Shown here piece by piece: positions 14,498 through 60,019 of a stretch of DNA of 64,000 bases. The translations under genes were made by a program, and so were the position numbers. The stretch is taken from contig OZ017759.1 in the NCBI GenBank assembly GCA_963969365.1, forward strand, positions 372,001 through 436,000. Direction: 5' to 3'. Numbering within the stretch: position 1 is the first letter of the stretch; every line of letters begins with the position of its first letter. The notes beneath the pieces are model-generated. The model did no database searches. It had not been told where the DNA came from and saw only the letters and a list, made by a program, of their open reading frames with translations. Source of the stretch: Asterochloris sp. CNOR1 (Eukaryota; Chlorophyta; Trebouxiophyceae; Trebouxiales; Trebouxiaceae).

Positions 14498-17400
14498 TCA
14501 TAGCAGCTCCCAGTCTCCGCCCTCATTGCTGTTGCTGGCCTCTGATACCTTCTCCTGTGCCTCCCAGTCAGGAGCGGAGCCTTCAGCAACCGACAGAAGT
14601 GGGGCCCCCTCAGAGGACATCTCCAGCTGCTTGAGTCTGTGACAGAGGTCCTGTGCATCATCTGCAGGGCAGCATTTCAGGCCTCGAGCTTGCAAACTGC
14701 TGCGCGGGCAGCAAAAGCACAAGCAAAGTTCACCTCTGGCCTTGCAGAGGAAGCCAACGGCCAGGGAAGGGTCAATGCTTGCTGCTGGCATTGCGCGCAG
14801 GTCATGGCACCAATAGCTGTCGGTGTCCCCAGCCTGCGCTGCCACCTGCAGGGTGAAGGATCACAATGCTTGGGGGGTCTCTTATGGGTGCACTGGGGCA
14901 GAGTCCCTGTTTGACAGGGTCTGGTCGTCTCCCCTCTGCATGGCCTGGCCTCAGTGCTGAGTCAAGCAGCAATGCCCAGCCATGCATGACCCTGCAGGGG
15001 TTGCAGACTGGGCAGGCACTCACGCAGCGTAGTGCCGACTGCCCTCAGGTCTTGGCGACAGACGGGTGATGCTTGCACATCTGCCCTGGAAAGGCGTGCA
15101 GCCCATGCTGCGGCTGTGGCTTGGGTCCCCACACCACTTGGAGCAACAGCAATGCAGATTGTCCACCGGAAAGTCACCTGGTGTGCCGCCTTAAGGCCAG
15201 AAGCAGCAGCACTTTACTGGGGTGCCCTCAGTGCGGAAGTTGAGGTTCCAGTCTGCTGTTATCTGACCTGCTGTGACTCGTGGGGGTCCAAGAACACCAG
15301 CTGGTCTGTGAGATGCCCCACAAAGTAGAGCGAGGAGGAGGGACGGCCCCCCACGATGCCCATGCTGTGGGGCCACGACAAGACTGCTTGCAGCTGGGGC
15401 ACATAGCGTTGGTCGATCTGCACCACAGGGGAGAGGAGAGCTGGGACTAGATGTGGCAGGGGCCAAGGGAGTGTGCACCAGAACTGAGGCCCATGTATGC
15501 GCCAGCAGCCAGGCAAAGCAGAGCCAGTGTTACCTTGCAGCTGGGGGATGCAGCACTGTGTGACCTGCTTGAACAGGAATGGCAGCAGGATGATGCAGTA
15601 AACACAGGGAAATTGGTGGGCCTGGGAGACGCAGCTCTGAAAGCAGTGCCAAAGCCCAAGGCAGGACGGGCTAGGCTTGTGCGCAGCTCGCGCGGCGCAG
15701 GTATGCAGCTGGACAGGCACTGTCCAAAACATTTTCTCCTGCGTTTCAACGTGTGCAGCAGTCAAGGAGCAGGGTAGCTGCTGCGCACCTTTCCTATTCC
15801 CAGGACTAGGGGTACAAGCACCAAAAGAGCATTACAAGCCTGGTCATTCATTGCGCTGAGGCCGGGGGAGTCAGCTTCTGGGAAGTGGTCTAGCAGTCTG
15901 CAGGCAGGCACAGCTGTGACAATTCAGAACCTGCCCCAACTTTGTGTGAGCATAACCAGGGCTGCCTGACGCCCTCAGGGAGTAAAAGCAGGGGCAGAAG
16001 CAGGGCTGCACAGCAGCAGTTTAGCGAGCAGGGCCAGAACTAGATGTCCTCCTGCATATCATCCTTTCTGCAACAGGTTTCAGACAAAGTTAAAGCGCAC
16101 CACTGCCAGCAACTCTGCGCCTGGCACCCTTTTGGGCCCGACATGCACCACCACGAGCAGCATCGAGAACACACAGCCCACGCAGCCGCTCACCCCGTGG
16201 TGTATAACACCGGCGCTCCGCCACCGTTGCAGCCCTGCTGCGATACAACATACACGTGCAGGCCGCCGGGCTGCAGGCGGTTGACTGCATCCTTGAGGGT
16301 TTGGCACAGGGTCCAGGGGCCCAACCACTCCCCTGGGCGAATCCTGCAGCCAGGCAGCAATTGCCATCGCAAGCAGACGCACCGGCAAAAGGCTGATCAG
16401 TGCAGCTGCACCTCTTGGCACAGAGGCACGGGCCGCAGCAGCAGGCGCAGTGGTTCTGGACAGGAGGCTGCACAGCACAGCCGCACAGTCTGGTACGAGC
16501 TGAAGCTTCCGCCCGCTTGCCAGTGCGAATGCTGCAGCCATGGCAGGCCTTGCTTCACTGCCTGCTCGCCAGAGGCCAGCACAGCAGCCCGATGTGCAGG
16601 AGAGTCCAGTGCCTCAGCCACGCCCCCTTCGTAAGCAATGCCGGAAGCCTGTTTCAGCTTTTGGCACCGCCTGAGAAGCTGGACTACAAGGTGATCCCCA
16701 CGTGTTTCAAGCACCTGCTACTGTTGCCTCAAAGCAGTGCAGGCACGTGCTACAAGGCTCCAGTAGCAAGGCGCATAGGGTGCTTCAAGCCCTGTCCAGT
16801 CTCAGAACTCCTCTCACCCATGGCGCCGCCCAATGGCGCACAGGTTGTGTACAGAGAAGTGGTGTTGCTGCTCAGGGCTGTCCCAGAACCACTTCAGCAG
16901 GCGCGACAGGGGCTCGGGGCATGGCCGCTGGCGGGCCAAGCACATGCTCGAGTCCCCTGTTGGCTCGGGCCCCTCGCAGCAGCTCTGAGTGGGGCCAGGC
17001 CGCCGCCAGCTGCGCCCCAGGCTCAGCACCAGCAGGGCCTGGGCCAGCAGCATCTGCCCACTGCGCAGCGTGCAGCCCCAGCCGACGTCTGATGACAGCC
17101 CAGATTCCCCTGCAGGCAGGCATCCTTCGCAGTGAGCAGTGTCTGGGCCAAGTAGTGGGTGCCTCTTGGGCAACCTGCAGCCCCAGCTGATGTCTGATGA
17201 CAGCTCGCAAACCCTGCAGGCAGTGCACCATAACGGGAGGCGGCAGGCGTCTCAGCACCAGCAGGGCAGCGTGAGTCCGCTGCGCAGCAGGCAGCCTCTA
17301 TCAACCGCTGAAGGCCCGGGCTTGCCTGCAGGGCGAGTGGCAGCAAGCTCGCTCAGCAGGAGCAGAGCTTGGGCCACAGGCACCACCAATGTCTTGAGTA

Positions 17401-20129: not shown

Positions 20130-20137
20130 TATATAAG
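20130..20137 (+). promoter_or_regulatory. TATA box of VHA-A
   Basis: TATATAAG lies about 45 bp upstream of the proposed ATG at 20177 and on the same strand. That spacing would allow a short 5' leader from a start site near 20160. It supports placing the first VHA-A exon here rather than farther upstream. Confidence 0.6.
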
Positions 20138-20176
20138 GAAGCTGCCGTATGGGCCCTGATTGCAGTCTGTGGATGC

Positions 20177-26776
<6,600 letters not shown>

Positions 26777-27189
26777 TGCCTTCTCTCATGTACTCTTGAG
26801 CACACAATGACATCAATGAACTTCTGGATCAATCTGCCTGTCCACACAGCAGGCTAGGCAGCCATTATTGTTTGCTTTCCTCTGTCCCATTCACAGTCTA
26901 CTGCATGAAACATGATCCAAGGTTGTTACACAGCAAAGTCAGGACGCAGAAGTTTGAGAGTTGCGTAGGGCCTGCTTACTAATTAGGGCTACTTGACAGT
27001 GCGGCTCCAGCAGAAACAGTGATCTGTGCCATCGGTGCTGTCCAGCTCAGTCCCCAGAAATCAGGTACGAAATGCGCTGGCCGAAGAGGCCTGGCGTGTT
27101 TTGCTTCTCTGCTCATGCCACCCGCCCAATTCCTGTGGTGCTGAATGGCAATCTCCGGGGTTCTGCAGTCACCTGAGTCCTCAGCAGCG

Positions 27190-30162
27190 ATGGCAGATGC
27201 CAAGGAGAGTGCTGTGTGGAAGACTGCCAAGCCCTTCATCAATGGAGGCCTCTCAGGCATGGCAGCCACCTGCATTATCCAGCCCATTGACATGGTCAAG
27301 GTCCGCATTCAAATTGGCGCCCAGGGCACGCCGGTGAGTCTGGCTTGATGTCTGGGCAACCAAGCTCAGCCGGCAGACTTTGCGAACATCCATCACAGCG
27401 GCACCTGCCAGCCACCGGCTCTGCTGCTTTCGGCTTCCCCTCACTGGAGGCGGCGGACCGCATGCGCTGAGCTGGCATGCCACAGGTCACCGCCATGTGG
27501 TTTGGTCAGCCCCACATGTGCACACAGCGACGGCGGCAGGCGCCTCAGAAGCTGCGACAGCACTCCTCGACAGAGGCAGTCCCGAGACATGCCACCAGGA
27601 TCTCGCTCTCAACTTCACGATCATGCCAAGCATTGCTGCCAGGCCCCATGAAGCTGGCTGCCAGACCCTTTTGAGCAGCGGTGTGCTCACCCTTACCCTT
27701 GACTGCTGCAGATCAAGGTTGCCCAGGACATCATTGCCGCAGACGGTGTGGGGGGCCTGTATAAGGGGCTGTCAGCCGGCCTGCTGAGGCAAGCCACCTA
27801 CACAACTGCCCGCCTCGGGTTCTTTGGCATCTTTAGTGACGAGCTGAAGAAGAGGAATGAGGGCAAGGTGGGCCCTTGAAGAGCTGGACATGTGTGCCCA
27901 TGTGAGGAGGGCTGCTCCTTGGGTCAGTGCGGGCCTGAGTAGGCCGCGCTGCACAGCTGGCCTCTCAGCATATGCTTGTGCTGGGCCTGTCGGAAGCTGC
28001 CAGGCCACTGCAGACTAATGGCTCCTCAGGCCAGTGCAGACGCAGCTGACCAGCTGTGCGGGGGTGCTGTAGCTGCACACAACCTGATGCATGCAAAGCC
28101 TGTGCACAGCATGTAGCCCAGGGGCACCCTTGAGGGGCCAGCTCAGGAGCTGTGCATCTTTAGAGACATGTATGGTCGCACCGCTGGTGCAAGGGGCTGA
28201 GCGTCTGTGTCCGCAGGCTGCTGGCAGGCCTGCTGGGGTGCGTCTGACCCAGATGCAGCAGTGCGGCGGCTGCTCTCCTGGTGCAACTCCTTCTCCTCCA
28301 GCGGTCCAGCACAAGCCTCCTGGGGCGCCAAGGCATGAGAAACATAACATCACACCTGCAGTCAAGCCTGCTTTATATGTTGATGCAGGCATAGCTGCAC
28401 CAGTGGCGCGATCCAAGATACTGTGAGCTCAGCTCAAGTGAAGCCTGCAAGTTGACTCAGCAATTGTTTTGAGAAATCAGCATTGTAGCCCACAGTCCAT
28501 CCTTTGTGCCCTGCAGCCCATCCCCCTGTACCAAAAGGCCGGCGCCGGCCTGGCTGCGGGAGGCCTGGGAGCTCTGGTGGGCTCCCCCGCCGACCTGTCG
28601 CTCGTCCGGATGCAGTCCGACTCCACCCTGCCCCTCGAGCGGCGCCGCAACTACACCAGCGTGACCAACGCGCTCACCAGGATCGTGAAGGACGAGGGCG
28701 CCATGGGGCTGTTCAAGGGCGCGGGGCCCACAGTCGTCAGGGCCATGGCCCTCAACATGGGCATGCTGGCATCCAATGATCAGGTGGGTTAGCTGAGAGG
28801 CTGGCCTGCTGGCTCTAGGGGCTGCTGATGGGTTTCGATCCAAGAGGCGGGATACCAGTGTGCAGGCCAGGGGGCCCCACATGTCATGCTGGCCTGTCAT
28901 GACCAGGTGAGGGGCTGAGAGGCTTGTCTTTTGTGCTGTTGTTGTGGCTTGCTGGCTTGCAAGGCTGAGGGGTTGCTGACTGTCATGAGTGCTAAGGGCG
29001 AGACCCCACCGTCAGGGCCATGGCCCTAAAGTCACGCTGGCCTCTCTGAACACCTTGGGTTGTTGACTGCTCTGAGAGGATGTAGGCCGTGAGACGAGGG
29101 GCCAGCAACGTGCCAGGTGTGTGGCCTCTGCCTATTGCTGTCTACCTCAGATGGCGGAAGAGACATGCAGGACCTGCGCCTCAACCCATTGGGCTCCATG
29201 TCTGCTCACCCCTACTGAGCGCTGCTCTGTCTGCAGGCCAAGGAGATGCTGGCTGAGGCTGGCGTCAAGGGGCAGACCAACGTGGTGGGCGCCGCCTGCA
29301 TTGCCGGATTCTTCGCAGCCTTCTGCAGCCTGCCCTTCGACTTCATCAAGACACGCATCCAGGTGGGGAGCAACACTGCCCGTCACTTACCTGCTTCACT
29401 CCTGACGACCACTTGCTGCTGCCCTCAGCATGGGCACCTTGCCTCTTTTGATGGCTGAGCAGCACTTAGTGCAGATCGCCGCAGGCACCAATGAGGCTGG
29501 TGCTATGTATGCGAGGGCCCTCAACTGTCATCAGCAATCCATGCCCTGGAAGAGTGCCATGTGACACAGCCCAAGCCTCCTGCACTCTGGTGCAGTGGCC
29601 TGCTGAGACCTGCCTCTGCAGGAGCAACTTGCTGCACGCTAGTCGTCCTGAACTTCATTCATTGCCTGCTGCCGCAGAAAATGGAGAAGGGCCCCGACGG
29701 GACGTACCCATACAAGAGCCCTGTTGACTGCGCCATGAAGACCTTCACCCAGGAGGGCCCCCTCAAGTTCTACACTGGCTTCCCTACTTACTGCTTCAGG
29801 TGGGTTGGGGTTGATCACAGGTCTGTGCATGTGTGCTTCAGCAGGGGGCTCATGACCTCTGCTGCCAGAGCCTCCATGCTTATTTGGAACTGGGTCAGCT
29901 CTGGGGGGCTCGGCATGCCTTGCGTCGCGCATCTCCAGACCAATGGCAGCATCTCCAGACCAATGGCAGCACTTACTGCAGCCTGCTGTGTTTGCTACTG
30001 GGTTGCCACCTTCAACCACCAGTCAGCAGCCTGCAGTTGAGTGACTGTTGAGCAGCATGTTCATTTGTTCCTGTCGCTGCCTGCAGGATTGCGCCACATG
30101 TCGTCTTCACCCTGTTGTTTGCAGCCGCGCTGCCCAAGCTCGAAAAGAAGGTTGGACTCTGA
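27190..30162 (+). CDS. DTC: mitochondrial dicarboxylate/tricarboxylate (oxoglutarate-malate type) carrier
   Basis: An inner-membrane exchanger of the SLC25 family that swaps oxoglutarate, malate and related acids. Six exons: 27190-27333, 27712-27867, 28517-28783, 29237-29362, 29678-29799 and 30087-30162. Phases agree (891 nt, 296 residues), the usual family length. The start MADAKESAVWKTAKPFINGG is chosen because the first carrier helix follows directly. All three carrier signatures are present: QPIDMVKVR, SPADLSLVRMQ and LPFDFIKTRIQ, the first helix of each of the three repeats. The end is PKLEKKVGL. The closest named types are plant DTC and animal OGC (SLC25A11); exact substrate range cannot be read from sequence. 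It lies about 410 bp after VHA-A on the same strand and is convergent with NUP155. Confidence 0.94.
28855..29060 (+). repeat. two diverged copies of the 3' end of carrier exon 3
   Basis: The exon end (GGGGCCCACAGTCG through GATCAGGTGGG, ending 28783) recurs as GGGGGCCCCACATG through GACCAGGTGAGG, ending 28906. It recurs again at about 28990-29060 with GTCAGGGCCATGGCCCTAAA. The intron sequence after the donor (GGCTGAGAGGCT) was copied too. Confidence 0.7.
29934..29975 (+). repeat. 20-bp tandem duplication in the last carrier intron
   Basis: CATCTCCAGACCAATGGCAG occurs twice in a row, nearly or fully identical, so it is young. It lies in the intron between 29799 and 30087. Confidence 0.7.
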
Positions 30163-30368
30163 GTCAACATCAGTGGTGCACGCTGACAGCTCTGGCCATC
30201 TGACACTATTTTTATGTGCTTGAAATGCTTTTTAGGACCCAGCTTAGTCACTGCCCCGCATGCCCCTGTGACCAGATCTTTGAAACATTCTGAGCCTGTA
30301 CTGATCCTGTTCCCAGCACAACGCCCACCCGCTACTTTGTTTGTGGAGTGCTGTCAACTAGGACCTGC

Positions 30369-30376
30369 TATAAAAG
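30369..30376 (+). promoter_or_regulatory. orphan TATA-box-like motif
   Basis: TATAAAAG on the plus strand, with no open frame of note after it. If used, it would start a transcript antisense to the 3' end of NUP155. It may equally be chance. Confidence 0.2.
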
Positions 30377-30443
30377 GTGTGGCATCGTTCAGCAGAGCTG
30401 CAACGTCCAGATGCCTGACCGCAACATCCAGGAGCATCTGCGA

Positions 30444-30587: not shown

Positions 30588-33500
30588 TCAGGTGCTCACA
30601 AACCTTCTGGCAGCATGGAGTAGGGAGGGGAACTGGTTTTGCCTGAGAGGCCGTGGGTGCCTGATCTCGGCGTCCTGTTCCTGTCTGTCAATCAGCTCCA
30701 CAAGATCATCTAGCGCGGCAACCAGCTCATTACTGTCAGGCAACGACAACTGTGCCGGAGCGGTGCGGCGGTAATGATCGATTTTTGACCTCAGGTCATT
30801 GATCTGCAGCACCAAGAAACGCCACAAGTCAGTGCCAGCATTGGTGGCGCAGCATGGCTATGCCTGCAGAGAGGACTGCACAGTGCAGTGCCATGCTGCT
30901 TCAGCCAGTCGTCGACTCAGGCGCTGGCCTTGCTCAGACACATGCCAACAAGCCATCTGAATACACAGAAACGCTTTACGGTAGCGACTCACCTTCTCAT
31001 CCCTCTTGTTCCAGGCCCAGGCCTCGCTCATGCGGATGTCATCTGTGGTGCCCCGCAGGTGCAGCAGGCGCACACGGCTGTGCATCAGGCGTGCCCGCAT
31101 GAACGGCTCCCTGGCCTCCTGGCCCCCCTCAGGGTCCCCTTGCTGGCGCTCCAGGAGGGCGTCATATGCACGCTCCACTTGGGTCAGGCCAGAGTCCCGG
31201 TTGCCCTGGCTGGGCCCCATGACCTCGCGTGCCTGCAGGCAGAGGATTCCAACATTGCATGTGAGGAGACTGTGTGCAAAGCCACAGACAGCCAGGGTGG
31301 TGGGCTGCATTCCTGACAGTCCAGGCCGACCCCCTGTGCCTCGCATGCCTGCAGGCAGCGCCTGCACGCTTGCTGAAGCATCTAGAAACTGGGTTGTGGG
31401 TGTGCCGGAATAGTGCACTTGCCGGCGGGCTGGAAGCTGCATGCAAGTCGCTGCATGCAAGACGCTGCACTGTAGTGCATGGGAGTGCTGAGTGGCTGAG
31501 GGGACCCTTCCAGGCATCCAGACAGTGACTTCGCAGCGCAGATGTGCAGCCAACAGTCTGGGGCTGCAGCCAGGGCTGGAGAAAAGGGTGTGGGATCCAC
31601 GCAGCAACAGCAGCCCTCCACTGGGCTGCTTGCACAAGGCTGGGCTGCTTGCACAGCTTGGAGTCCCCTTCCAGCCTAGCAAGCCCCGACCTCACACAAC
31701 CCAGTGCCTCTGCCACCACTGCATCCTGCGCCACTCCTGCCCTTCCGGAAGCCAGCAGCGGCCACATCCCAGAAGGACTGCTGCCAAGCCCTCCCTGTGC
31801 GTGCATATGCATGCTGCACAGCAGATGGTGCTTTGACAAATGCTAGCACTATCTCTCCAGCCCCACACATATGTACATGCCCTTCGCAACACCAGGGCAT
31901 TCCCACCAGCTGCATGCTGCCTGACTCCAAGCCCGTTCTCGTTGTGACGACAGCACTTCCTGGCAGCACTGCTGCAGCATCCTCACAGGGCACAGGGGTG
32001 ACATGCACAGATTGTTGTGCTGTGTTTTTTGCCCTACAGACACCTCCTTCGCACAGCAGACTCCTCTGCCCCTGCCCGCACTCACCACAATCAGTGAGTC
32101 CACAACGGCTGCATGCTGTGCAACTCCAGGCCTGTTCTCAGCTGGCGGTGGCCACCGCCCAATGGCCAGCTCCTCCAGCCTCAGAATCAGGTGCTCGAGG
32201 GGCATGGCCCACTGGTGGATGTGAGGGCCCAGATCGCGCAGGCGCTGCAGCACTTCCCCAAAGGCTGCCTCTGCTTGATCAGGGGTGCATGCGCCCTCAC
32301 GAGACGCCAGCATCTTGGGACCCTGCAGCGCGGCCGGGCACACGTTGTTGGATGACGCAATGCAGACCTGCAGCGGCTCTGCCAGAGGCTGCCTCTCGGG
32401 GGAAGTGCCCTTACAAGACGCCAGCATCTTGGAACCGGTAGGCATGTGGTACAGACCAGGCGCTGGAGCACCTTGCCAAAAGCTGCCTCTGCTGCACTGC
32501 AGGTGCCCTCCTGGGGGGGGCTCAGCAGCTTGGCACCCTGAAGGTCAAGCATGAACAACTCTGGCTCCAGCATCGACCCCTCTCCACTTCCACAACGAAA
32601 TCATGGGCCCAACAGAACCCACCTGCAGGAGGTACAGCTTCCACAGCTCCTGCAGGTCTCGCGGCTCCAGGCGGTTCCCCTGCCCGGCCGCGTCGGCCAG
32701 CTGCAGGCACACGTCCCAGTACCGCTGGGGCACTGCCACCGAGTACAGCTCCTGCAGCTCCATCACGCTGCACTCCACGGCGGCCAGGGCCCTCTGTAGG
32801 GCCGGCTTGGAACCCTCATCAGCTGTCTGCAGGCAGACATGAGGGAGATGAAGGGGGTTGAAGAGTCACTCCAAATGAGTAGAAGGGGTTGGATGTTTGG
32901 GGCCAATGATGGGCCGCCAGGGTGTGTGGCAGCTGCGTCTGCTTCCTGCAGGCTCAGTTGGGACGAACTGTGCAGGGGATGCAGCCAATGGAGCCTGACA
33001 GGCGGAGCACACATCCCAGCCAGTTCAATATCTCACTGCCATTGACTACTGCAGGCTGTCATAAGAAGACAAGACAAGAAGCACAGCAGGCATGCCTGTC
33101 CTCCTGTGCTGCAGCACAGCGCACCTCAGGCAGGTCACTGCACTTGTATGCCCACCCAGTCTGTGAGCCTGTGGGTCACTGAACCCCGTTGCAACTACAC
33201 ATGCAGGCCCCGGCAGGACGGCCAGTGGTCATGGCAGAGTCGCCAAGCCACTGCAGCCCATCTGCTACTCCTGCCACCAGCACTGTGCAGGCTACGTTGC
33301 CAAGCCCCCCAGTCCCAATGCAGCCCAGCAGCGCCCTGTTCCTCTGCACAGGTACATATTCCCATGGCCACTGCAGCCCTCAGACCGGCAGATCTCAGGC
33401 AGTTGGCAGTGACCACTTGCTGATGCAGTAAGTTACCACGCCTCTGAGGCTCACTGCTACAGGGGCCCCTGCAGGACAGCTCATCCTCCTGGATGCTTTC

Positions 33501-36500
33501 CTTCTGCTCACCTGCAGGTCACTCCTCAGGCGCTCTGCAATGGCCATCTGCAAGTCAGCGCTCTGAACGCGGCACTCCAGCGCATCCTTCCAGGCATCCC
33601 TGCCGGAGTCATAGGCCTGCAGGGACGACAGGGGGACGTTGGACCCTGACCCACCAGAGTAGGCCTCCATGAGCCACACATTCATTTTGCCTCCCCTCCA
33701 GAGCCATTTGCCTGCAAACCTTAGACATTGCCGCATTCAAACCAACTCTGGCCCAGTCAAGGAGACAGGGCTTGGCGCCCCTGCCGGTCTGTCACAACTC
33801 AGCCACTCTGGATGCTGCTCCCTGTACCAATGGCAGACACTTGCGCAAGGTGTGAACTCGCTAAATCCACCCCTGTTTTGTACTGTGGGCAGGGCCTGCT
33901 CCTCAACACAGCGCCTCTTCCAGCATTGCACAGCAGACACACTTCTGCTGCTGCTCATGCAGTCAGTCGAAACACAGCCAGGCCCTGTGCTGCTCGCTGC
34001 ACAGAGGCGCCCTTGAGACAGGAACAAGGACCTTTGAGGGTTCCACACAACCCTCTGTTACCTCTGCTCGTGCATCCCGCAGCCAGTCCCTGCGCTGCTC
34101 GATGGGCAGAGCCTTCTCCTCAGGGGGCGCAGGGGCCAGGGCCAGGGTCTCCCACATCTTGCCCGCCCGCTCACGGGCAACTTGAATCGTCTGCGTGGGC
34201 TGGCGCATCGCCGTCGCATCCTCCGCCTCTCGGTGGTACAGCCTAGCTAGAGCCTCCACACACACCCTCTGCAGCAGGCAGCGCTTGTTCTGTGGCAGGC
34301 AACAGATGGGCAGGGGAGTGGGCAGCGACAAACACAAGCGTCAGGTTGCCAGTCAGCACAAGACCCTCACGCAGATTCTGTGCAGGGGCAAGGTGTGGGA
34401 TTACTGAGGACTTGTTGTGGAGGCTGACACAGGGCAGCGGCCTGGTCCTGCTGCAGGCAGCAAGAGGTGCAGGCAGGGCCGTGCCAGGGGGTTAGGGGTT
34501 GAAGACTCACACATGAACCGCTGTCCTGACATGGTGGGCACAGGCATCTCAGCACTGATCTCAGTGGATGCCCTGACTGCTGATTATGGCTTCCTCACCC
34601 TTCCCAGCAAGCCCATAGGGGGGCCCGCCATAGGATCGTTGGCACAGGGAAGTACTGGTCGATCTGCGCCAGGCCCACTCATTGAATCAGCTTTGCCTCA
34701 GGCAGCCCCTGCTGTCCCTTCCACATGTGCCTGACTTGGCGTAGCTTGATGCTGTGCTCCCCCTCACCTGCTGACGGTTGAGCTGTTGCCCCTCTGGCAA
34801 CTCCCCGTTGCTCTGCACACCGCCGCACTGCATGAGATGGGTTTCAATGCGCTTCTTGCCCGTTCTCCCGGACTGGCGCGCCGCCTCGATGAGGTCCTCC
34901 ACCGCCCCCATCTCGATCAGGACGCTGAGCACCTCCTCTTGCAGCAGCGTGTCCTTGGCACTCTCTGTGATGTCCTGCAGGGCAAGTATGGGGTGTGTGT
35001 GGGTGCCCCCTGACAGGGAGTTCTTGCAGATTAGGCTGTGGTTTGGCAGTGCAAGGGGCAATGCTGAGCACCAAGTCCTGCAGCAGGGTTTCCAGGACAC
35101 CACCTTTGGCAGCAGAAGATTCCCGAGGCACACTGGGCAATGTACTGGATGGCCACTCGTGCATGTCATAATGCCAGCTGGCACCTTGATACTCACGGCG
35201 GCCAAGCAGGACATTGCAGAAGATGCACTGGGAAAGTCTGCTGCATGCTTTTCATCTGCAGCAGGGGTGCTTGAGCAACCCCCCATAGCATGCAACAAGG
35301 CTGGAGGTCGTGTGCACATAGAAGCCTCGCAAAAGTGCAGGCAGCCAAGACCGCGCAGTCCCTGTGCTGCGCAGCTGCCCGACCGCAGTCTCATGGCACA
35401 GGGACACCGCCGTCAGCATGCTCTGGTAGGTGGGCCTTTGGTGTTGCACTACGCTTGAGAATTTACGAGGGGCGCTATGCAGCAGGCCAATCCTTGAGGG
35501 ATCACATATGCGTCAGGCAGGCCATGATGCTGTGAGGCCCTTGCAGGTCTTTGCTTTGCTGTCCAGCCTGCCTGTCACGAATATGGCTGTCCCTCATCAT
35601 GCACTGACCGGGGCCTGTACCTGCCCTACTCCTGCAGCAGCCTGGCTTGGGGCAGGTGGCAAGCAGACACAAATGTGTGCCCCTGCAGCCCCCCTGCACG
35701 CTGCCATCCTGCAGCCACTGAGCTGCTTTGCCTCTGCAATGCAGGTGCCCCTGCTGGTGAATCTGCAGAAGTCACCCCTCTGCTTGCAAAGCTGGGCGGG
35801 TGGGCAGCTTTGCAAGAAGGGGAGTGGACCCCCGCATATTCACCATCATGCAGCTGGCGCAGGCCAAGGCCAAAGCGCTGGACTCGGCTGAGCGCAGCAG
35901 CATCCCTCTCAGCACAGTATTCAAGGTAGGCAAGGAGGGGTGCATGCCATGTAAGGCAAGCAATTCCAGGACCAGCTTGTTGGGTTCCACAAGGTCAATG
36001 GAGCCTTGCTTAAAGGCGTATGCAGGCTCCAGCCAGTAGCACAGCACCTCCCGCACAGCTCTACACAGCAGGGTCTGTGTTTGCCATGCCCCCTATCTGA
36101 TGCGCTGAACACTTTTGAGGGCTTTGCCAGTTGCATGCATCAAAGTGCAGGGTGGCATTGCACCAGAGACGCCAGAGATGAATGTCCCGCTTGAATGGTC
36201 GTAATGTTGAGCCTGCAGTGTTAGTCGCCTGCAAGTCAGCCGCCAGCTGTAACATGCCGTGGTGGACTTGCCCACAGACTGAGAGGAGCCCTGCCGTGAA
36301 CGCCTTCATGGGCAGGCCCGACCGCTTGCCACAGTGTTCACCTGTGGTGGTGCTCCAGCTGCCCTGGGAACCCTGCTCATGGCAGTCCTGGCCACGCTGC
36401 TCATATTGCTCTGGCCACCCTGTACTCCCCGGTCGTCACGACCAAAAAATGCAGACCAGGCAGAGCAAGTATGACCAGGTCGGCCAGGGCGGCTACTTTT

Positions 36501-45500: not shown

Positions 45501-48500
45501 TGGAGCATGCGCAAGGCACCCAGCCGCCCTTTCCTGCTTAGACAAGCAGGGCAAGCCTGCAGCAGAACAAGCTGAAGCCCAGCTTGTTATGCTCAACCGG
45601 CCCTTCTCATCTGAAGGTGGGCGGCAAAGGTCAGTCTGTGCAGGTAGCTGAACCTCGCCGTTCCTATAGACAGCATGGCCAACCTCAGATGCATCAAGTT
45701 GAAAGAAGTTGAGAAGCTATGTGTTGCTGTACCAGAGCATCTTGTCTGGTGCTGGATGGCAAAGGTGACCTGTATGCGCGTCCCAGCAGCCACCTGCTGC
45801 CACCAGATGTGTAATCACAACTGGGCCTGCTGCTTGACTTGGGCCAGACAGCGCGCTGCCAGGGCTTGTCAGCCAACCTTGTAGCAATCACAGGGAAGCT
45901 GCCCTCAGGGCCCAGCTGCGCAAAGTGTTGCTTGTAGTGCAGGATGCAATGTGGGCCACCGCAGATGCGGCTGGACGGCAACGCCGGCTGCATGCATGCT
46001 GTACAAGCCAACATAGTGAGTCCGGCTGCTTCTATAGGGAGACAGGAACCTTGCCAGGACACGCCAGCCGCTTGCTGAGTCACTCAAAATGGCCCAAGAA
46101 GGACAGTGGGGAGGCGACCTCGCTCACAAGGCAGCACTGCTTTGTGAGGGAGGACACCGTCCTCCCTGTCCTCTCCTGGCCAAGCTTTGCTGCATGACAC
46201 AGTCATGCAAGATGCAGCTGGAGCGCTGCCAAGGGCAGGACATGCAGTCTGCTCAGGCCTGGTCAGCAAGCAGAGCTGACACGTGAGGATGCACACAGCT
46301 CCGCATGCAGGGTCGCATCGCGCTCCTACCACCTGGGGAAGGTGCAGCGCAGAACAGGCAGATGCAGCCAAGCGATCAGGGTCACTACCCACAGTGCGTC
46401 CAGGAGTCATGACCATTCATGATCCTAACATGACGCAGGCAGTGACCCTTGCTGGGGCGCACCAGCAAACTTCACAGAAGTCAGTCACCCACAAGCAAGC
46501 AGCCGTGAGGGGTCAGGATGCAGGTGGCATTGCTCTGACTGCAGCATGACCGCCCTTCCTGCCAGCCCAGCTGAAGCCGATGGTCCATGCTGGCTGTGTG
46601 CAAGCTGTGCACGGCCATAAAAGATGGGCAGCTTTCCAGGTTGCAGCTCCGTGGAGACTGGCATCCGCCATGAAGGGATGCATAGAGCTCACAGCTTTGC
46701 CAGGGGTGGCCAAGCCAGTGAGCCCATAAGAATCCCCAATGAAACCCTATGGCTCGTCTCCACACTTCCCACATGTGTTCAGGCGTTGGATGCCACGGCT
46801 GGCTTGCCACCCATGTGCCCTCGACACACACCAGCCATCTGGGGCCAAGCCTACAGGTAGCCGAGTCTGTTCCAGGGCACACTTGCGTCCCCACTCGCCT
46901 CAGGCCACCTTCCTGTTCAAGCTGCAACCTGCAGTATCCAGCCTTGCCGGACCCAATTAAGCCCACCTGACGCCCCCTGCTCCTCATTGAGCAGCGCCCA
47001 CATCAGCGTGTGCGCCAAAGTGTCCCCATCCCGCCTCACTGCCCATGACTGCAGAGTTGTGCGTGCCAGCGCAGCACGTTGCTCCTCATCAAGCTTTACG
47101 CTCAGCAGGTGCACTCCCTTGTGCTGCAGCACCGCCAGCAGGGACAGGCTCTGCGCGATGCGCTCCGTCAGGGCCAGCACCTGCTTCAGGCTGCAGGCAG
47201 GAGTCAGTACACGTCAGTGCCTACAGTGCCCCAGGCAAGGGACATCGCATGTGGTAGGGCCAGTCCTTGATTCAAGCTGCAGGCGCAGAGGGGTAAATGT
47301 GATGTCAATCGTGCATCACATCGATCCTGGCAGGCGCACGTGTCAGAATCTGCAGTCTGGCTGCAGGCAGTGCCAGCAGACAGTGCACAGCACAAAAGCC
47401 AGTCCTGTGCGCTGAGAATTTCATGAACGGGCGTTTTCTCCATGTCTGAGGGCACTTTGACGCAGTGCTGGTGAGCAAGCAGGCATGGTCCAAAGCAGAT
47501 GTTGCAGAAACTGAAGCAAGTGCTGCACAGTGGCCTGCTCACATGTCATTGAACAGACTGTTCAGCAACAAAAGGACTGCAGGACTGCTGCCTGGTCCCA
47601 AGGCAGCACAAGTCAGCAATGCCCCTGGCCCCACTTTCGATTGAGGAATGCAGAGCTGGGTCTTGTACAGCCCACCTGTTGAGCTCCTCGTGCCTTGCGC
47701 TGGCAATGCGCCGCCGCTTTGCGGGGCTCTCCCCGGGATCTTGCTGCTGCAAGCCACGAGCCCCATGCCACTGCAGTTGGGGCTGCGCCTGCCTGGGTGG
47801 GTTGCGCAGACGCTCTTCACGTACATGTGCAAAGCGTGTGAGGAAGGCGGCCAGAGCACGGAAGTGCGAGTGCAGCGCCTGCAGGCAGTGCCAAAGATGG
47901 TGAACGAGCGCCCTGGGATGAGCTTGTGGAAGGATGACAGAGCATTTCGTCATGTGGTCAAGCGATCAGCCTGCTAAGCAGCACCATCACAAGCCTCAGC
48001 CGTGCTGCCTTGCCAGGAGCCGCCCCCCCCCCTCTCGCTGCAAGCACAGCTCCAGCATGTGTCCAGCAACAAATCCTTGGGACCAGCCAGCAGGGCAGAG
48101 TGATGCAGCACTTCCCCTGGCTTTGTGGGGACAGCCCAACCTTCAGCTGCAAGGGTGCCTTCTGACATGAACAGCCCTGAGCAGCATGTGAACAGCAACA
48201 AGCCCTGCCACCCAGCAAGCAGCACAGCACAGGGCATTGGAGGGGGTCACCGACACTGCCTGTCGAGACGGCACAACCCTCAGCTGCACGGGTGGTCCCA
48301 GGACATGCTCCTCACAGGCTGGCACAGCAACATACCCTGCTGGCCAGTCTGATGAGCAGCGCAGCCCACAGCAGAGCTCACCTGAATGGCTCCCAGAGAC
48401 AGCCCCACCTCCAGCTGAAGGGGAGCCTTGCCACTGGGGACAGCCCCGATGGCCCTGAACAGGTTGACTTCATCCAGTGGGCGCGCCAGCCTCTGGAAGT

Positions 48501-51500
48501 ACAGGCAGATTCCCCGGAAGGCAGGGGACCAGTCCTGCTGGTCATTGGTGACCACCTGCAGGGGAACAAGAACACCTATTTGTGGGCCTTGCTGTCAGCC
48601 TGGCACAAAGGAATGGAATAAGCAAAGCCTGGGAGATATCAAGATTGGGATAGCAGGCAACCACCAGTATCAGCAGGACAGAATCCCGGGTCTAGATTCT
48701 TCCAATCACAACTTTGGTGAGGCTATCCTGGCAGACCTTCAGTCAGCGGCAAGCTGTCAGGGCTTGACGACAGACCGCCTGAAAATTGGCAAACAGGCCC
48801 AGCCTGACCCAAGATGGACGAGGCAGCAGAGGCATGTCAGTAGAATCCTGAAGCAATCAACATCATCACTTTTTGTGCGAAAGCACTCCAAGGCACTGCC
48901 TGTCAAGTGCAGCCCAAGCAGCCCTTGCTTGGGTCGCATCATGCACGCAGCAGGGCATTGAAGGATGGCAGAATAAACGAGTCAATGCGGGCAGGGCAAC
49001 TCGACTGCCTGTGCTGTCACACCGCCTGCAGGCAAAGCTGTTGCTGCAACAGCCGACCACAGATCCCTCAGCACACAGTCCCTGCCCCTAGCAGCCCCCT
49101 GTCTCCACAGAGTCGTGCCCCCAAAGCTGCGCTGTGTGCCAGCAGCCTCACACCGCTGTGTGCCCGCAGCCTCACACCTCACCCCAAACGAGGTCAGGGC
49201 CTGCCCTGACTGCTCCTTGGTGGTGGCCTCGCCACCCAGGTCTGGTGAGGGGTCCTCCAGCAACTCACGTGCCCTCCTCTGCACAGCCTGCATGCAGGCA
49301 GCCAGACTCATCTGTACGCGGCTGCTTGGTGCCTTCTGAATTGCAGAGCACAATGTGCAGCACATGCATGCAGCTCTTCAGCCACAGGGTGCCTAGCCAG
49401 CAGAGTGTCCGGCTCCGCCTGCAATGCCATCTGCAGGCCAGAGCTGGGGGTGCTGACGGCGCAGTGAATGCATTCAGTCAGTGTCACATCTGGCCTGCAG
49501 GGTGTGCAGCACCAATTGGCACACCCTGAAGCCCTGTGTAGGCGCAGGTGACACATTTTCAGGTCCTGCGCAGCCCCCATGTAACACCCCAGAACTGCTC
49601 AGGCACTGGGAAGAAGCTGCACATCTTGGCATGCAGATGGTCGTGTGTCATGCCACAGGCCAATGGGTGCCTGCTTCGGTCAATTCTGTGGGCGTGCTGC
49701 ACTCCTTGTACATGTGGCAACCCTTCCACAGTTCACCAGGACTGACCAGCGCTGCTTCAGGGCACTGATACCCTGTGCAGCCCTCATGCCTCACCGCAGG
49801 AATCCCCTCCTCAGCAACAGCCAGCTGCACGGCCATGGCGCACCCCTCAGCAGTGCCACACAGCTGGAAGAAGCCCTTGATGGAGTTCATCTGGTTGCGC
49901 TGGATCATGTGGCGCAGCAGCTCCACTGGGCGGTGCTTCACAATGCCCTGGACCGCTGATACCCTGTGCAGCCCTCACGCCTCACCGCAGGAATCCCCTC
50001 CTCAGCAACAGCCAGCTGCACGGCCATGGCGCACCCCTCAGCAGTGCCATACAGCTGGAAGAAGCCCTTGATGGAGTTCATCTGGTTGCGCTGGATCATG
50101 TGGCGCAGCAGCTCCACTGGGCGGTGCTTCACAATGCCCTGGACCGCTGCAGGGCTAGACACAGAGAGTCAGCATGCCAAAACGTAGGCAGGTGGGCCAT
50201 CATTGGGCAGGCAGATTTATTCAGCAACGCTTCACGAGGCCCTACTCTGCTGCAGCAGCACATGGAGGTGGTCACGGGGTATTGAAGTTTAAGGTCAGGG
50301 GCGGTGTCAGAAATCATGCCACCCCCGCTGCTACAACCACATACTGTCTAAGAGCAGTCAGCTCCTGCAGTTGCTGTGCTGCCTGCAATGGTGGCGGGTA
50401 AGGATTTGCAGTGAGATTGAACTGCAGGGCATAGCACACAGATTGCCAGAGGCCTCAGAGAGTTGAAAGCGGTAGATCATGCTGGCACTGCTTTTTGCAC
50501 AGTGCATTGTTGCATCCCCTGCACATTCTAGAGAAGAGTGCCAGCAAGCCACAACAGCAGACTCAGGCCAATTCTGAAAACAGTCTGGATTGTCACTGAA
50601 GCACCACACCAAGCCCTTCCACATGAAATACCTGCAGAAGGAATTTGAGACCCAGGCCGCCTGCTGGGCCACTGGCATGAGCTGCCCAAGCTCACAGAGG
50701 ATGCAAGCTGTAGCCTCCGTTCTAGCACCTCAAGCTGAGCCCTCTGTTCTAGCACCTCAAGCTGAGCCCTCCCCTGAGTCGCCGCAACAAGTGCCTGCTG
50801 CAACAAGCAACTGCCGGCCGAGCCCACCTCCGGTGCCCACTGCCTCATAGGACTGCGGGGGCAGCATGTGTTGGGTCGCCAGCTCGGTCTTGAACTCATA
50901 GTTCCCCACTTCGGCCGCGCGAGGGGTACCCAGAATGTTGGGAACGATGGCCTGCACAATGCCTGCAGCACAGCAGACACAGCCGGCATGAGGAATAGGC
51001 ACTGACAGCCTCCAGCCAAGCAGCCATGACAAAGCCCTGGCGTTTCCTCAAACTTGATCTAAGCATCACACTGATTCCAACCATGTTGCAGGAAACGACA
51101 AGAGTTGGCTGGCATGACCTCGGATCAGGCTGGGCCTGCCTTACCATGAACTCAGGCCTTGTTGACATGTTCTGGCACCATGTCACTCACAGACACCCGT
51201 TATGGGCCCTGGAGCCCCTCCCCTTTCTCCCCTATCAAGTGCAGCCGCAGCCTCTCGTGAGTCAGTATTGGCATGCACGCCACGCACAGTGTCCCTGTAT
51301 GCCAAGCACGCAACTGCCAGCCTCTGCACGTTGTCACAGCACCCGGCAAGGCAGCAGCCAGCAGGCCCTTGCTCACCCCTGACGCTGGTGGTCCCCTTGT
51401 CCAGCGCTGCCACGGTCTCCCTCAGGTCAGGGATGGCCTGCTGGGAGCCCAGGCCAGCCTCTGTGGGCCGCGAGAGGTCCTTGGTGACGACCAGGATCCT

Positions 51501-57500: not shown

Positions 57501-60019
57501 CTACACTCAAATTTGTTGGGTCTTCCTGGAGGCTGCTTCGAAATGTGCATGAGGGGCGAGTGGTGGTGGTGTGCTGCAGCCGCCATGCGGCTCACCAAGG
57601 GGAAGTGGTTCAAAGGTCAGCCCAACTCTGCTGCAGCCTGCCAAGATTTATGTCACTGGCACGACGCAGCCCGCCGAGGACCTCCAGACTCTCCTGAGCC
57701 TCTCAAAGCATGTGAGTGGCTGCAGGCGGACACGTCCCTCACCAGACGCATGCTGGGGTGGCCTTTGCTGTGCTGCAGCTCATAGAGGTGCCCATCATTG
57801 CCCCCCAGGAAGAGGCGGTCCCCCAGGGTGGCACTGCAGCCCATGTAGATGAGGCAGCTGGGGATGCGGTAACCCATGGGCTCCACCAGCTGGAAGTAGT
57901 CCCCATTCTCAGAGTGGTCGTTGATGGGCTGCAGGAAGAGGCGGATGATCTGCAGGGCAGGGCGGCATGGTGGGTCAGGCACAAGGTGGGGCTGCTTGCA
58001 TGAGTACATGCCTGTGTGGGTGCGGCTGCTGAGGGGCTGCACGACAAGGTGGACGACCTGCAGGGCGGGACATGAAGGCAGGTCAATCAGGCTTGGTACA
58101 AGGTGTGCTGCCTGGTTGCCTGAGTGTCTGCTAGAGAGTGAGGGTGATGATGAACTGCTGGAAGAGGTGTATAATCTGCAGGGCAGGGCAGGAAGGTGTG
58201 GCAAGCTGGGCTAGGGATTGGGAAAGCTACTTGCTGCCTGAGTGTGACAGCCTTTGCTGGCGGCTGCAGGAAAAGGCAGATCATGCAGGGCAGGGCCATG
58301 CGGAGCTGAGTATGACTGAAACAAGGCGTGTGTGTTTCCTGGGCGATGAGTGGCCTGCGTCGGGCTGGGAGGATCTGCAGGGAGGGGGTGGCAGAGATGG
58401 GTAGATGTGCTGACAAGTTCAGGAGGTGGGCTGCCTCCCCATGTGCAAGCATTGCTGCATTGCTTGGGCCCTTGGATCAGCGCAGGAGTGCAAGTGGGGT
58501 GTCCTGTGAATGTGCGGGCAGAAGGCGCATGTGGGCTGAGGCGTGGCCAGCAGGCTAGCGACTGGTGATGGGCAGCCATGCAGGCGGGCAGATGATACTG
58601 AATGCTATGTGGCGCGCAGGACAGCAGGAGGTTGGCAGGCGGGCTTGACTGCAAGTGGGCTGGCAGCCAATGCAGCAACTGGGGGTTTGCTGCACTCTGC
58701 ATGCAGAAGCCAACATGTTTCACCCCAGTACAGCAGTCTGCTGGCAGCCAGACTTGGGCAGGACACGGCAGGCACAGGCGTGGCGTTGTTCCCACCTCTG
58801 ATGCTGTGCAGACGACCAGCGAGAGCTGGGCAAAGTTCCGCAGACCCCGGGGATTCTTTGTGAGGGCGACATGAGTGATGGCCTGCTCAGTGCTGGACCA
58901 CTCCATGGGCTGCTCCTGCCTACAGTGCATCACGAGCAGTTACCATCAGCAAGAAGCACTGCTGTTGCATAGCAGTGAAGAGGGGCCCCAGATGCAGCAA
59001 CAGCAGTCTTGCAGTTGTAGTTGCAGAATGGCCTTCAGCCCCTGCCGAGAAGCAACCATCGGGCTGTGTGCCCTGCTGATTGGCTTCAGCCCACCTGGTG
59101 GGCTATGTCAAACAGGCCTCAACAGGCTGCCAGCGTTGACTCAGCCTCAAACAGGCATTCAAGGTGCCAAAGCAAGACCTTCTGACCAAGCCTGCATGCA
59201 GGAAGCAGCTGGGCTTTGCCCTGCCTGGGACAGGCTGTGCTGATCGAGCCTCAGAAAGCTGGCAGCCTCAAGCCCACCTCTCAAACCTTGACACAACAGC
59301 CTGGTGTGCCAGGACAGGGTTCCCACATAAGCTCCTTTGCAGGAAGCAGGCGGGCTTGGCCCCGCATGTGATGGGCTGGGCAACACAGGCATAAACAATT
59401 AAGCTCAGGTGACATTTGGCCAGCACCCACCTGTCATAGTGCCACATAAACAACCTGTTGTCGACTGCAGCCCAGGCCATGCGCAGCTCTGGCAGAGCCC
59501 CCATGCGCGAAGAAGCCTGGGACTGACCATATGCCAGCTCCACTCTGTCTGGGACCTGGAACTTTGTGCCAGGCTCTGAGTTAAGGGGCTCAGGCCACTG
59601 CAGCAGCAGCAGCAGGCAGCGAGCTCACCAAAAGAGCAGATCAATTACTGGATGCATGGCTGCTGGTGCATGATCAACATGCCCACGATGGCCACAGCAC
59701 TGTGCACACTGATCAGCAGCAGAGGAGGGCCACAGCTGCTGCAAGCATGCTGACACTGGAAGATGCATGATTAGCAGCGCAGCATGCAGTGCACTGCTCT
59801 CGCCTGACTGTCTGTGACTGCCTTCTCGTCCTTTGCCTCTGTCTTCAGCAGATCCAGTAGGTCCAGGGAGGAGCCATCCTGGCTGGCAACCTGGCGCACG
59901 CTGCTCCAGGCATTGAACACCTGATTCAGGTCATCGGCACCAGCCACCTTACCAATAGGGCTCCTGGTGCGGCTCTGCAGGTAGCGGACATCATCCTGCC
60001 ACCGGCTGGGCACCGCCAT
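30588..60019 (-). CDS. NUP155: nuclear pore complex scaffold nucleoporin NUP155
   Basis: NUP155 is an inner-ring scaffold protein of the nuclear pore: an N-terminal beta-propeller followed by an alpha-solenoid. There are 25 exons, 5' to 3': 59804-60019, 59431-59597, 58796-58919, 57743-57949, 57187-57327, 53129-53219, 52724-52799, 51806-51952, 51377-51579, 50828-50962, 49986-50146 (or 49795-49955), 49183-49287, 48382-48555, 47676-47878, 46967-47190, 40816-40988, 40318-40494, 39343-39483, 34768-34974, 34062-34289, 33512-33616, 32623-32826, 32086-32322, 30993-31232 and 30588-30803. All phases join (4,302 nt, 1,433 residues; plant and animal proteins are about 1,390-1,460). Landmarks: LPELRMAWAAVDNRLFMWHYD, VYDLGKDGTG, KHRPVELLRH, LAQAKAQALDPAG and LYSVAVPQRYWDVCLQLAD. 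The first intron uses a GC donor. An in-frame ATG at 60040 is an alternative start. Exon 11 is duplicated. Confidence 0.95.
32365..32537 (-). repeat. two diverged copies of the NUP155 exon 23 start
   Basis: True exon 23 begins at 32322 with GPKMLASREG. Copies begin at about 32437 (SKMLASCKGTS) and 32537 (GAKLLSPP, later AEAAFGKVLQRL in a shifted frame), spaced about 115 and 100 bp. The copy at 32537 follows a CTTCAG acceptor-like site. Both now lie in the intron between exons 22 and 23. Confidence 0.8.
35290..36040 (+). repeat. inverted diverged duplicate of NUP155 exons 16-17 and their intron
   Basis: Read on the plus strand, this matches the minus strand of about 40230-40950. It contains the end of exon 16 with its GTAGGT donor (near 35426), the intron, exon 17 (QLAQAKAKALD against QLAQAKAQALD) and following intron sequence. 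It lies in the opposite direction to the parent gene, inside a later intron, so it cannot contribute to the NUP155 message. The copy differs at many positions and includes an extra stretch near 35815-35850. Confidence 0.85.
38226..38830. repeat. three tandem copies of a 205-bp unit
   Basis: The anchor ATGCCCTGCCA recurs near 38406, 38609 and 38817, about 204-207 bp apart. Each unit also carries GAGAAG..TGCTCTGCAGGCTGT-like and GGTGAT..GCTTCAGGCA-like blocks. The copies are well diverged. No coding role is seen. Confidence 0.75.
40989..46966 (-). other. largest NUP155 intron (6 kb)
   Basis: An intron between exons 15 and 16, mostly filled by the satellite at 42080-45530. The flanks (40989-42080 and 45530-46966) have open frames such as 41432-41863 on the minus strand, but none carries a recognisable domain or fits the splice pattern. 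Confidence 0.8.
42080..45530. repeat. intronic satellite, about 165-175 bp unit, with higher-order duplication
   Basis: A unit marked by CTGGGTGCCAGGTGTAGATG, GCTGCGCTCAGCCTGA and CACAGCCCCTCCCA recurs a dozen or so times (for example near 42587, 42752, 42856, 43023, 43190, 43333, 44537 and 44720). Unique-looking flanks are also repeated: about 42110-42360 matches 44030-44290, and about 43740-43930 matches 45310-45520. So a block of roughly 1.5-1.9 kb was duplicated as a whole, with different unit numbers inside. The units are not identical, so the array is not brand new. There are no uniform short repeats with unique spacers. Confidence 0.85.
49765..50146 (-). repeat. 191-bp tandem duplication containing NUP155 exon 11
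   Basis: Exon copies A (49986-50146) and B (49795-49955) are both 161 bp and differ at one base that I can find, giving Tyr in A and Cys in B. Copy A has a CTGCAG acceptor and copy B an ATCAG acceptor; both have a GCG/GTGAGG donor. The duplication also carries about 30 bp of flanking intron (near 49765-49794 and 49956-49985). The near identity implies a very recent event or a polymorphism. Confidence 0.93.
55574..55617. repeat. perfect 44-bp palindrome
   Basis: Two 22-base arms, AAGGCGGAGACTGACCATG... and its exact reverse complement, meet with no spacer. The flanking bases do not pair, so the symmetry stops sharply. In RNA it would fold as a perfect hairpin. Confidence 0.95.
56447..56524. 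repeat. 78-bp imperfect hairpin
   Basis: The left arm (56447-56481) and right arm (56491-56524) are near reverse complements around a 9-base loop. The inner 12 pairs (CCTGCAGGGGCC with GGCCCCTGCAGG) are perfect. The outer arm has a few mismatches. It could be a small-RNA precursor or a worn foldback element. Confidence 0.8.
57960..58374 (-). repeat. four tandem diverged copies of the NUP155 exon 4 start
   Basis: The true exon 4 begins at 57949. Upstream copies begin at about 58057, 58175, 58282 and 58374, so spacing is roughly 108, 118, 107 and 92 bp. Each follows CTGCAG or a close variant. They match the exon start ATCATCCGCCTCTTCCTGCA with increasing divergence upstream. Copy 1 reads VVHLVVQPLSS against IIRLFLQPIND. 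Confidence 0.85.

What the first reader, a model, noticed from the sequence alone, without database searches (positions are those of the whole stretch)
14498..60019. Recurrent tandem duplication of exon edges, often with a 90-120 bp step, in unrelated genes
Introns of ATG4, VHA-A, the carrier and NUP155 all contain worn tandem copies of a neighbouring exon edge together with its splice site. Where several copies occur, starts are evenly spaced: 104/112 in ATG4, 103/100 in VHA-A exon 9, about 108/118/107/92 in NUP155 exon 4 and about 115/100 in exon 23. Both acceptor-side and donor-side edges are copied. A shared unit size across unlinked functions suggests one local mechanism acting repeatedly. 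Duplicating an edge adds a spare splice site and leaves the old exon piece as intron, which matches the proposal that tandem duplication can lengthen or create introns.
Basis: partly seen in the sequence, partly recalled or inferred. Interest (0 to 1): 0.88.

Follow-up and report, generated by a model that had tools for sequence, protein, structure and literature searches.

The report
Exon-edge tandem copies inside introns
Introns of several unrelated genes here hold worn tandem copies of the neighbouring exon's edge, best read as small local DNA duplications whose outer copy ended up inside the intron, a readable record of how introns grow.

Summary
The copies are real. In 64 introns of 7 hand-pruned gene models, the intron matches its own acceptor-side edge better than every other intron's edge in 11 of 64 cases and its own donor-side edge in 7 of 64 (about 1 expected each; reverse-complement control 1 and 1). 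Of these 18 best matches 14 hold at least 10 exon bases; 4 are mainly splice-region sequence. The copies look like dead sequence: mismatches are even over codon positions, with indels. A young 191-bp duplication in NUP155 (99% identical, 3-nt CAG at the junction) shows the process nearly fresh.

The shared 90-120 bp unit is weak: 17 hand-collated arrays step 86-219 bp and 7 fall in 90-120. In rice, tandem duplications are enriched at 50-200 bp, so no special ruler is needed. The concentration at exon edges roughly fits uniform placement plus slower decay when one copy is a constrained exon.

Verdict: ordinary small tandem duplication across exon-intron boundaries, tolerated if the exon-proximal splice site stays in use; introns lengthen. 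No intron creation was seen. The kind is known (potato RdRp); density and repeated arrays are the interesting part.

The parts
23635..23872 (+). VHA-A intron 8 / exon 9 acceptor-edge array: two copies (edges 23641, 23744) before the true acceptor at 23844; steps 103 and 100
   Evidence: intron also repeats with itself at 104
57922..58390 (-). NUP155 intron 3 acceptor-edge array: true exon start 57949, copies at +108, +226, +333, +424
   Evidence: TRF period 118
17022..17512 (-). ATG4 intron 2 acceptor-edge array: true exon start 17109, copy 17135-17223 at +104, shorter pieces at +229, +330, +341, +467
   Evidence: TRF period 105
32238..32543 (-).
47170..47370 (-). NUP155 intron 14 acceptor-edge copies at +86 and +170 of the exon starting 47190
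49765..50149 (-). Youngest event: 191-bp tandem duplication of NUP155 exon 50146-49986 with its donor; second copy taken to lie in intron 11
   Evidence: 99% identity over 194 nt; junction read
48124..48429 (-). NUP155 intron 13 donor-side copies (steps about 131-137) of the exon ending 48382; best match stops 16 nt short of the donor
31223..31358 (-). NUP155 intron 23 acceptor-edge copy at +116 of the exon starting 31232 (20 nt, 10 of them exon)
31691..32139 (-). NUP155 intron 23 donor-side copies at 199 and 390 from the exon ending 32086
28715..29044 (+). Mitochondrial carrier intron 3 donor-side copies at 124 and 279
22560..22777 (+). VHA-A intron 7 donor-side copy at 157
24880..25091 (+). 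VHA-A intron 11 donor-side copy at 185
26086..26347 (+). VHA-A intron 13 donor-side copy at 219; match stops 10 nt short of the donor
16337..16546 (-). ATG4 intron 3 acceptor-edge match at 189 (weak, only 7 exon nt)
63048..63174 (+). EF-hand gene intron 4 acceptor-edge match at 109 (weak, only 6 exon nt)
34924..35093 (-). NUP155 exon at 34974: near-edge exon piece (positions +20 to +51) copied 139 nt upstream
33975..34111 (.). Intron-only tandem pair, step 105 (no exon involved)
59197..59381 (.). Intron-only tandem pair, step 141
61229..61398 (.). Intron-only tandem array, period 61

Best explanation
Small DNA tandem duplications (tens to about 200 bp), most likely from repair of closely spaced nicks or staggered breaks, strike these genes at roughly uniform positions. 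When one spans an exon-intron boundary it copies a splice site plus a slice of exon. The exon-proximal copy of the splice site stays in use, plausibly because exons are recognised as units, so the protein is unchanged and the outer copy becomes intron. The outer copy then decays without constraint. Re-copying of an existing unit gives the evenly stepped arrays. Edges stand out because one partner is a constrained exon, so the pair stays recognisable longer than two free intron copies. Shown: the copies, their excess, their tandem layout, their decay pattern and one near-fresh event. Inferred: the repair route, which splice site is used, exon definition, and neutrality of the lengthened introns.
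For: Own-edge excess 11 of 64 and 7 of 64, reverse-complement 1 and 1; 14 of the 18 best matches hold 10 or more exon bases. Local self-matches: 70 windows versus 0.5 expected at score 34 or more; 32 merged events at score 33 or more, 15 of them exon-intron pairs; 69 ungapped segments versus 2-4 in six shuffles. Mismatches between 10 copies and their exons by codon position 31 of 138, 22 of 137, 33 of 137 (p = 0.22) with 10 gaps (which corrects a wrong ATG4 frame). Edge-array steps modulo 3 are 4, 6, 7 of 17, whereas exon-exon repeats, at a few places in one low-complexity gene model, have distances 42, 51, 84 and 378, all multiples of 3. The 191-bp event: 99% identity, CAG at both ends of the unit, good acceptor CCCTGCAG before copy 1 only, both donors intact. 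Edge arrays to intron-only arrays 12 to 5 (my grouping, units of 40 bp or more) against about 2.6 (unit 105) to 4.3 (unit 150) expected from placement and a 12% retained visibility. Rice: tandem duplications highly enriched among 50-200 bp mutations, attributed to repair of adjacent nick sites.
Against: No RNA data, so site use is inferred from the gene models and from conservation of the protein. Four of 9 exon-matched acceptor copies still score at or above the median true acceptor, about 10% expected under 20% neutral decay, which hints that some outer acceptors are kept. The visibility sum rests on an assumed 20% extra divergence. Only one junction is young enough to read, and an assembly error could mimic that pair. 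Gene models are my own and unverified by transcripts.
Confidence: 0.8

Rival explanations
1. A lineage-specific mechanism copies about 105 bp at exon edges (a ruler), for example one tied to splicing or nucleosome size.
For: 7 of 17 edge steps in 90-120 bp, p = 0.03 against a flat 60-220 range, 0.003 against 60-300 and 0.0004 against 60-400; bump at 100-120 in 5 of 26 arrays.
Against: 10 of 17 steps lie outside: 86, 124-157 and 185-219; half-distance copies are not seen for 157, 211, 219 or 141; intron-only tandem pairs occur too with 61, 105, 141; the edge bias is roughly explained by visibility.
Confidence: 0.1
2. The outer copies are functional: alternative acceptors or exon starts kept by selection, for instance to make non-productive transcripts.
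For: Copied acceptors in VHA-A intron 8 (2 of 2) and NUP155 intron 3 (3 of 4) score 13-15 bits, as strong as true ones; 4 of 9 exon-matched copies at or above the true median; intronic CCTGCAG 48 versus 22.9 expected.
Against: Exon parts decay evenly over codon positions with indels; donor copies show no retention; 10 of 12 placed acceptor copies would shift frame or meet a stop if used, which fits only a non-productive role; the reverse complement CTGCAGG is also enriched, 38 versus 22.8; the acceptor excess rests mainly on two arrays of non-independent copies.
Confidence: 0.07
3. The matches are chance similarity from a CTG/CAG-rich genome and a strong shared acceptor motif.
For: The acceptor consensus CCTGCAG is strong and common, and 4 of the 11 acceptor winners hold 0-7 exon bases.
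Against: Other introns' edges carry the same motif and lose; exon-only edges still give 6 of 64 and 6 of 64.
Confidence: 0.02
4. Introner-like or transposable elements inserted with duplicated target edges.
For: None found here; introners are reported in 5% of species searched (PMC9860276, start of abstract in a search listing only).
Against: The copied sequence is specific to each locus; apart from the 42-45.5 kb zone, one inverted pair and self-palindromes, no pair of far places above 50 bits was found in the window.
Confidence: 0.01

Closest known systems
Intron gain by tandem duplication crossing an intron-exon boundary, potato RdRp (PMC4974935; passages read, including most of the abstract)
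   Same: The duplicated unit holds the 3' part of an intron and the 5' part of the next exon, with splice signals inherited from the parent.
   Different: There a new intron arose by activating a cryptic donor; here the outer copy is absorbed and the intron lengthens, often more than once.
[quoted passage not shown] not held; known here only as cited in PMC4974935 and PMC3443670)
   Same: Short internal duplications covering intronic and exonic sequence.
   Different: No intron creation shown here; I could not compare rates from the text.
Small tandem duplications from repair of adjacent nicks in plants (PMC7971508, passages and the whole of section 7; Vaughn and Bennetzen 2014 and Schiml 2016 seen only as citations there)
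   Same: Direct tandem copies, enriched at 50-200 bp; the share of events that are tandem duplications falls from 70% to 5% by 200 bp.
   Different: Those are insertions compared between rice varieties genome-wide; these are mostly old and seen at exon edges in an unnamed eukaryote.
Tandem duplication at staggered breaks by CST and Pol alpha-primase (PMC8355091, start of abstract and passages)
   Same: A break-repair route to small tandem duplications.
   Different: Shown in mouse and human cells; not tested here.

Membership tests
Boundary-crossing tandem genomic duplication | Copy contains both intronic splice-site sequence and adjoining exon | tested here: met
   Met in several arrays: NUP155 intron 3 from -14 to +28, ATG4 intron 2 from -10 to +79, VHA-A intron 8 from -6 to +38, VHA-A intron 7 from -57 to +4. 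In others the visible match stops short of the site, e.g. VHA-A intron 13 and NUP155 intron 13
Boundary-crossing tandem genomic duplication | Direct, head-to-tail layout at one locus | tested here: met
   Same strand, reverse-complement control at chance; near full-period homology in ATG4 intron 2, NUP155 introns 3, 11 and 13
Boundary-crossing tandem genomic duplication | Excess over chance with matched composition and motif | tested here: met
   Swapped-edge null
Intron gain by tandem duplication | A new intron exists that relatives lack | not testable with these tools
   No genome held; no relative of the queries in viral contigs; genome contigs gave none for the carrier and, in the 80 loci shown of 545 matches for VHA-A, bacterial and archaeal records only
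Nick/patch-repair tandem duplication | Unit size mostly under about 200 bp | tested here: met
   16 of 17 hand-collated edge steps are 86-199 bp, the other 219
Nick/patch-repair tandem duplication | Junctions with little or no microhomology (feature recalled, not from a call) | tested here: inconclusive
   One readable junction, 3-nt CAG
Mutually exclusive or alternative exons | Copies under coding constraint (third-position bias, frame kept) | tested here: not met
   Even codon-position mismatches and 10 gaps in 10 copies
Introner elements | Shared sequence between introns of different genes | tested here: not met
   No far pair above 50 bits outside the 42-45.5 kb zone, one inverted pair and self-palindromes, in this window only

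The most novel reading that the evidence does not exclude
In this lineage introns grow mainly by repeated small tandem duplications rather than by transposons, and exon edges act as slow-decaying tracers that let the rate be measured. In some arrays the copied acceptors are kept strong by selection, so tandem acceptor ladders would be a working feature of splicing rather than wreckage.
Probability: 0.15. Interest if true: 0.75.

Novelty: new variant of a known kind. Interest (0 to 1): 0.5.

Why it matters
To my knowledge (recalled) intron growth is usually credited to transposons. Here 13 of 64 introns show an own-edge copy with at least 10 exon bases, and because one partner is a constrained exon the pairs stay readable after intron-only duplications of the same age would have faded (simulated). 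That gives a way to count local duplications per intron and date them in any genome with good exon annotation. It also suggests that lengthening comes at once when the duplicated unit crosses an edge and the inner splice site keeps working.

Tried and rejected
A shared unit length was tested with the step list, a half-distance search and an any-unit array scan, and was not upheld as a narrow peak. In one search, 8 of 11 pairs show no half-distance copy, NUP155 intron 13 and the carrier show weak ones (4% and 3% of null as high), and NUP155 intron 11 is uninformative because the shifted segment overlaps itself. TRF at relaxed settings found periods 51, 61, 68, 105, 118, 137 and 191 among those of 50 bp or more, none in five shuffles. 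The chance-motif explanation was tested by swapping edges and dropping splice bases and rejected for the long matches. The functional-exon explanation was tested by codon position; one search used a wrong frame for ATG4 (29, 23, 34 mismatches) and one search corrects it (31, 22, 33). Retention of acceptors was tested twice: a hand-picked set gave CTGCAG kept in 5 of 8, p = 0.017 (counted by me, p); the exon-only set gave 4 of 9 at or above the true median with Mann-Whitney p = 0.15, 0.05 or 0.016 for assumed divergence 0.15, 0.20 or 0.25. I treat it as a hint only; donors showed none. In one search two copies (EF-hand gene intron 4, ATG4 intron 3) were scored at a misplaced edge and should be ignored, and the ATG4 peptide printed there is in the wrong frame.

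Gene models: the first gene finder over-predicted; the second was pruned by hand. Before counting I regrouped its two minus-strand genes into one NUP155 model and one ATG4 model and dropped: the NUP155 first exon (60639) and small pieces at 57128, 55055, 45454, 42098, 39279 and 36820; the minus-strand pieces from 30803 down to about 20.7 kb and those at 12675 and 10993; the carrier tail beyond 30150; and the first or last small exons of the two plus-strand genes in 0-11.5 kb. Three NUP155 introns of about 4-6 kb probably hide exons. The region 41.5-45.6 kb (a dense degenerate repeat) was left out of the diagonal and window scans (lower limit 41.9 or 41.5 kb). Edge steps used are my one-per-array choice; they include weak arrays (EF-hand gene intron 4, NUP155 intron 7, ATG4 intron 3) and omit the 27-bp VHA-A intron 5 repeat and the matches at 277 (NUP155 intron 10), 533 (NUP155 intron 11) and 465-466 (first plus-strand gene). 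The visibility simulation used 13 of the 15 exon-intron pairs. The far-side exon edge, a further control, won in 3 of 57 and 1 of 57. The 12-to-5 count leaves out two 27-bp repeats and intron-intron pairs that belong to edge arrays.

Searches for relatives gave nothing useful: carrier in genome contigs and viral contigs, VHA-A in viral contigs; VHA-A in genome contigs gave prokaryotic records in the 80 shown. Paper searches for intron lengthening by such duplications showed no direct report in the listed titles; most listings were capped (for instance 15 of 484) and the library holds open-licence papers only.

Full report
What was asked.

Gene models. The window is 58% GC (base counts) and no whole genome is held. 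I trained a simple exon chainer on clear exons and pruned its output by hand. Pfam supports NUP155, ATG4, the mitochondrial carrier and VHA-A, plus a dynein-type AAA gene (7.6-11.5 kb) and an EF-hand gene (61-63.6 kb) whose matches lie just under Pfam's cut-offs. Joined NUP155 exons match solved NUP155 chains (best 1.6e-42). The best solved match of VHA-A is 7uw9_E, which I recall as a plant enzyme. The test set is 64 introns of 7 models, median 434 bp.

Is it more than chance? For each intron I scored the best local match to its own exon edge and to the edges of the other introns. Own acceptor edges win outright in 11 of 64 introns and own donor edges in 7 of 64, with about one expected each. 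The summed excess is 9.2 and 10.3 standard deviations, with none of 20000 permutations as high; reverse-complemented edges win in 1 and 1 of 64; far-side exon edges in 3 and 1 of 57. Using exon bases alone the counts are 6 and 6 of 64. Looking at the 18 winning matches, 14 hold 10-70 exon bases; of the other 4, two hold none and two hold 6-7. So 13 of 64 introns carry a clear exon-edge copy. A scan of 60-nt windows against the next 420 nt finds 70 windows at score 34 or more versus 0.5 for random places, and 32 merged events at score 33 or more: 15 exon-intron, 12 intron-intron, 3 exon-exon and 2 outside the models.

What the copies look like. Four arrays show homology over nearly the whole period, as head-to-tail duplication requires. 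Ten copies differ from their exons by 31, 22 and 33 mismatches at codon positions 1, 2 and 3 (138, 137 and 137 sites, p = 0.22), with 10 gaps: they decay like free sequence. Step lengths show no preference for multiples of three (4, 6, 7 of 17), while exon-exon repeats, all in one low-complexity gene model, have distances 42, 51, 84 and 378. That contrast is what one expects if edge copies are spliced out and exon copies are translated.

The youngest event. In NUP155 a 191-bp unit is repeated at 99% identity over 194 nt. It starts at the last CAG of the acceptor and runs through the 161-nt exon and the first 30 nt of the intron to another CAG. Copy 1 keeps the good acceptor; copy 2 is preceded by a poor one; both keep the donor. 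Using copy 1 and its own donor gives the normal product and puts copy 2 in the intron. An assembly error could mimic this one pair, but not the decayed ones.

Unit size. One step per array gives 17 values from 86 to 219 bp, median 124, with 7 in 90-120. Whether this is a peak depends on the assumed range (p = 0.03 for 60-220, smaller for wider ranges). Eight of 11 pairs tested lack a half-distance copy, so most long steps look like real units. Arrays of any kind run 14-378 bp (26 arrays, not all independent; 0-1 in six shuffles). Rice gives a ready comparison: tandem duplications are highly enriched at 50-200 bp, and their share of events falls from 70% to 5% by 200 bp, attributed to repair of adjacent nick sites (PMC7971508).

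Why edges? If units fell anywhere, boundary-crossing starts would be about 0.31 to 0.51 of intron-only starts. Adding 20% divergence to the exon partner leaves on average 12% of 13 edge pairs detectable. Together these predict about 2.6 to 4.3 edge arrays per intron-only array; I count 12 to 5. The sum is rough, but no edge-seeking mechanism is needed.

Why tolerated? The exon-proximal site is taken to be the one in use, because the outer sites would add sequence that mostly shifts frame or meets a stop (10 of 12 placed acceptor copies) and the proteins are conserved. This is what exon definition would give for both acceptor and donor copies; it is inference. Introns with winning matches are longer (median 539 versus 378 bp, p = 0.003), partly because longer introns offer more room for a match.

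Loose end. Copied acceptors in VHA-A intron 8 and NUP155 intron 3 are as strong as true ones in 5 of 6 copies, and 4 of 9 exon-matched copies reach the true median where about 10% were expected. The set is small and not independent, and donors show nothing of the kind. I leave this as a hint.

Place among known things. Boundary-crossing tandem duplication is known from potato RdRp, where it made a new intron (PMC4974935, passages), and tandem duplication is a recognised source of introns (PMC3443670 and PMC2891723, passages). Here the outcome is lengthening, often repeated, in four unrelated genes of one 64-kb window. My searches showed no direct report of that outcome in the titles listed, but the listings were capped and cover open-licence papers only.

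Noticed in passing
42000-45600: Dense field of degenerate direct repeats (pairs mostly 68-92% identical, spacings from about 107 to over 1000 nt) inside a large NUP155 intron; nothing recognised by eye in its open frames, origin unknown.
   Followed up: partly
35296-36034 and 40240-40933: Decayed inverted duplication (68% over about 750 nt): a stretch covering NUP155 exonic sequence reappears on the other strand inside a later NUP155 intron.
   Followed up: partly
55558-55633, 53563-53671, 56447-56524, 41186-41425 and others: 14 near or self-overlapping inverted repeats versus 0-3 in five shuffles; possible fold-back duplications or small elements.
   Followed up: partly
20540-20550: The VHA-A exon ends CAG followed by GCAAGC and the model splices there: a likely GC-AG intron.
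   Followed up: no
38247-38833: Direct repeats at 211 and about 411-421 nt in a long NUP155 intron, with an inverted match between two of the copies as well.
   Followed up: no
1935-2041 and 5335-5443: Tandem repeats of 51 and 42 nt (17 and 14 codons) inside predicted exons of a low-complexity protein.
   Followed up: no
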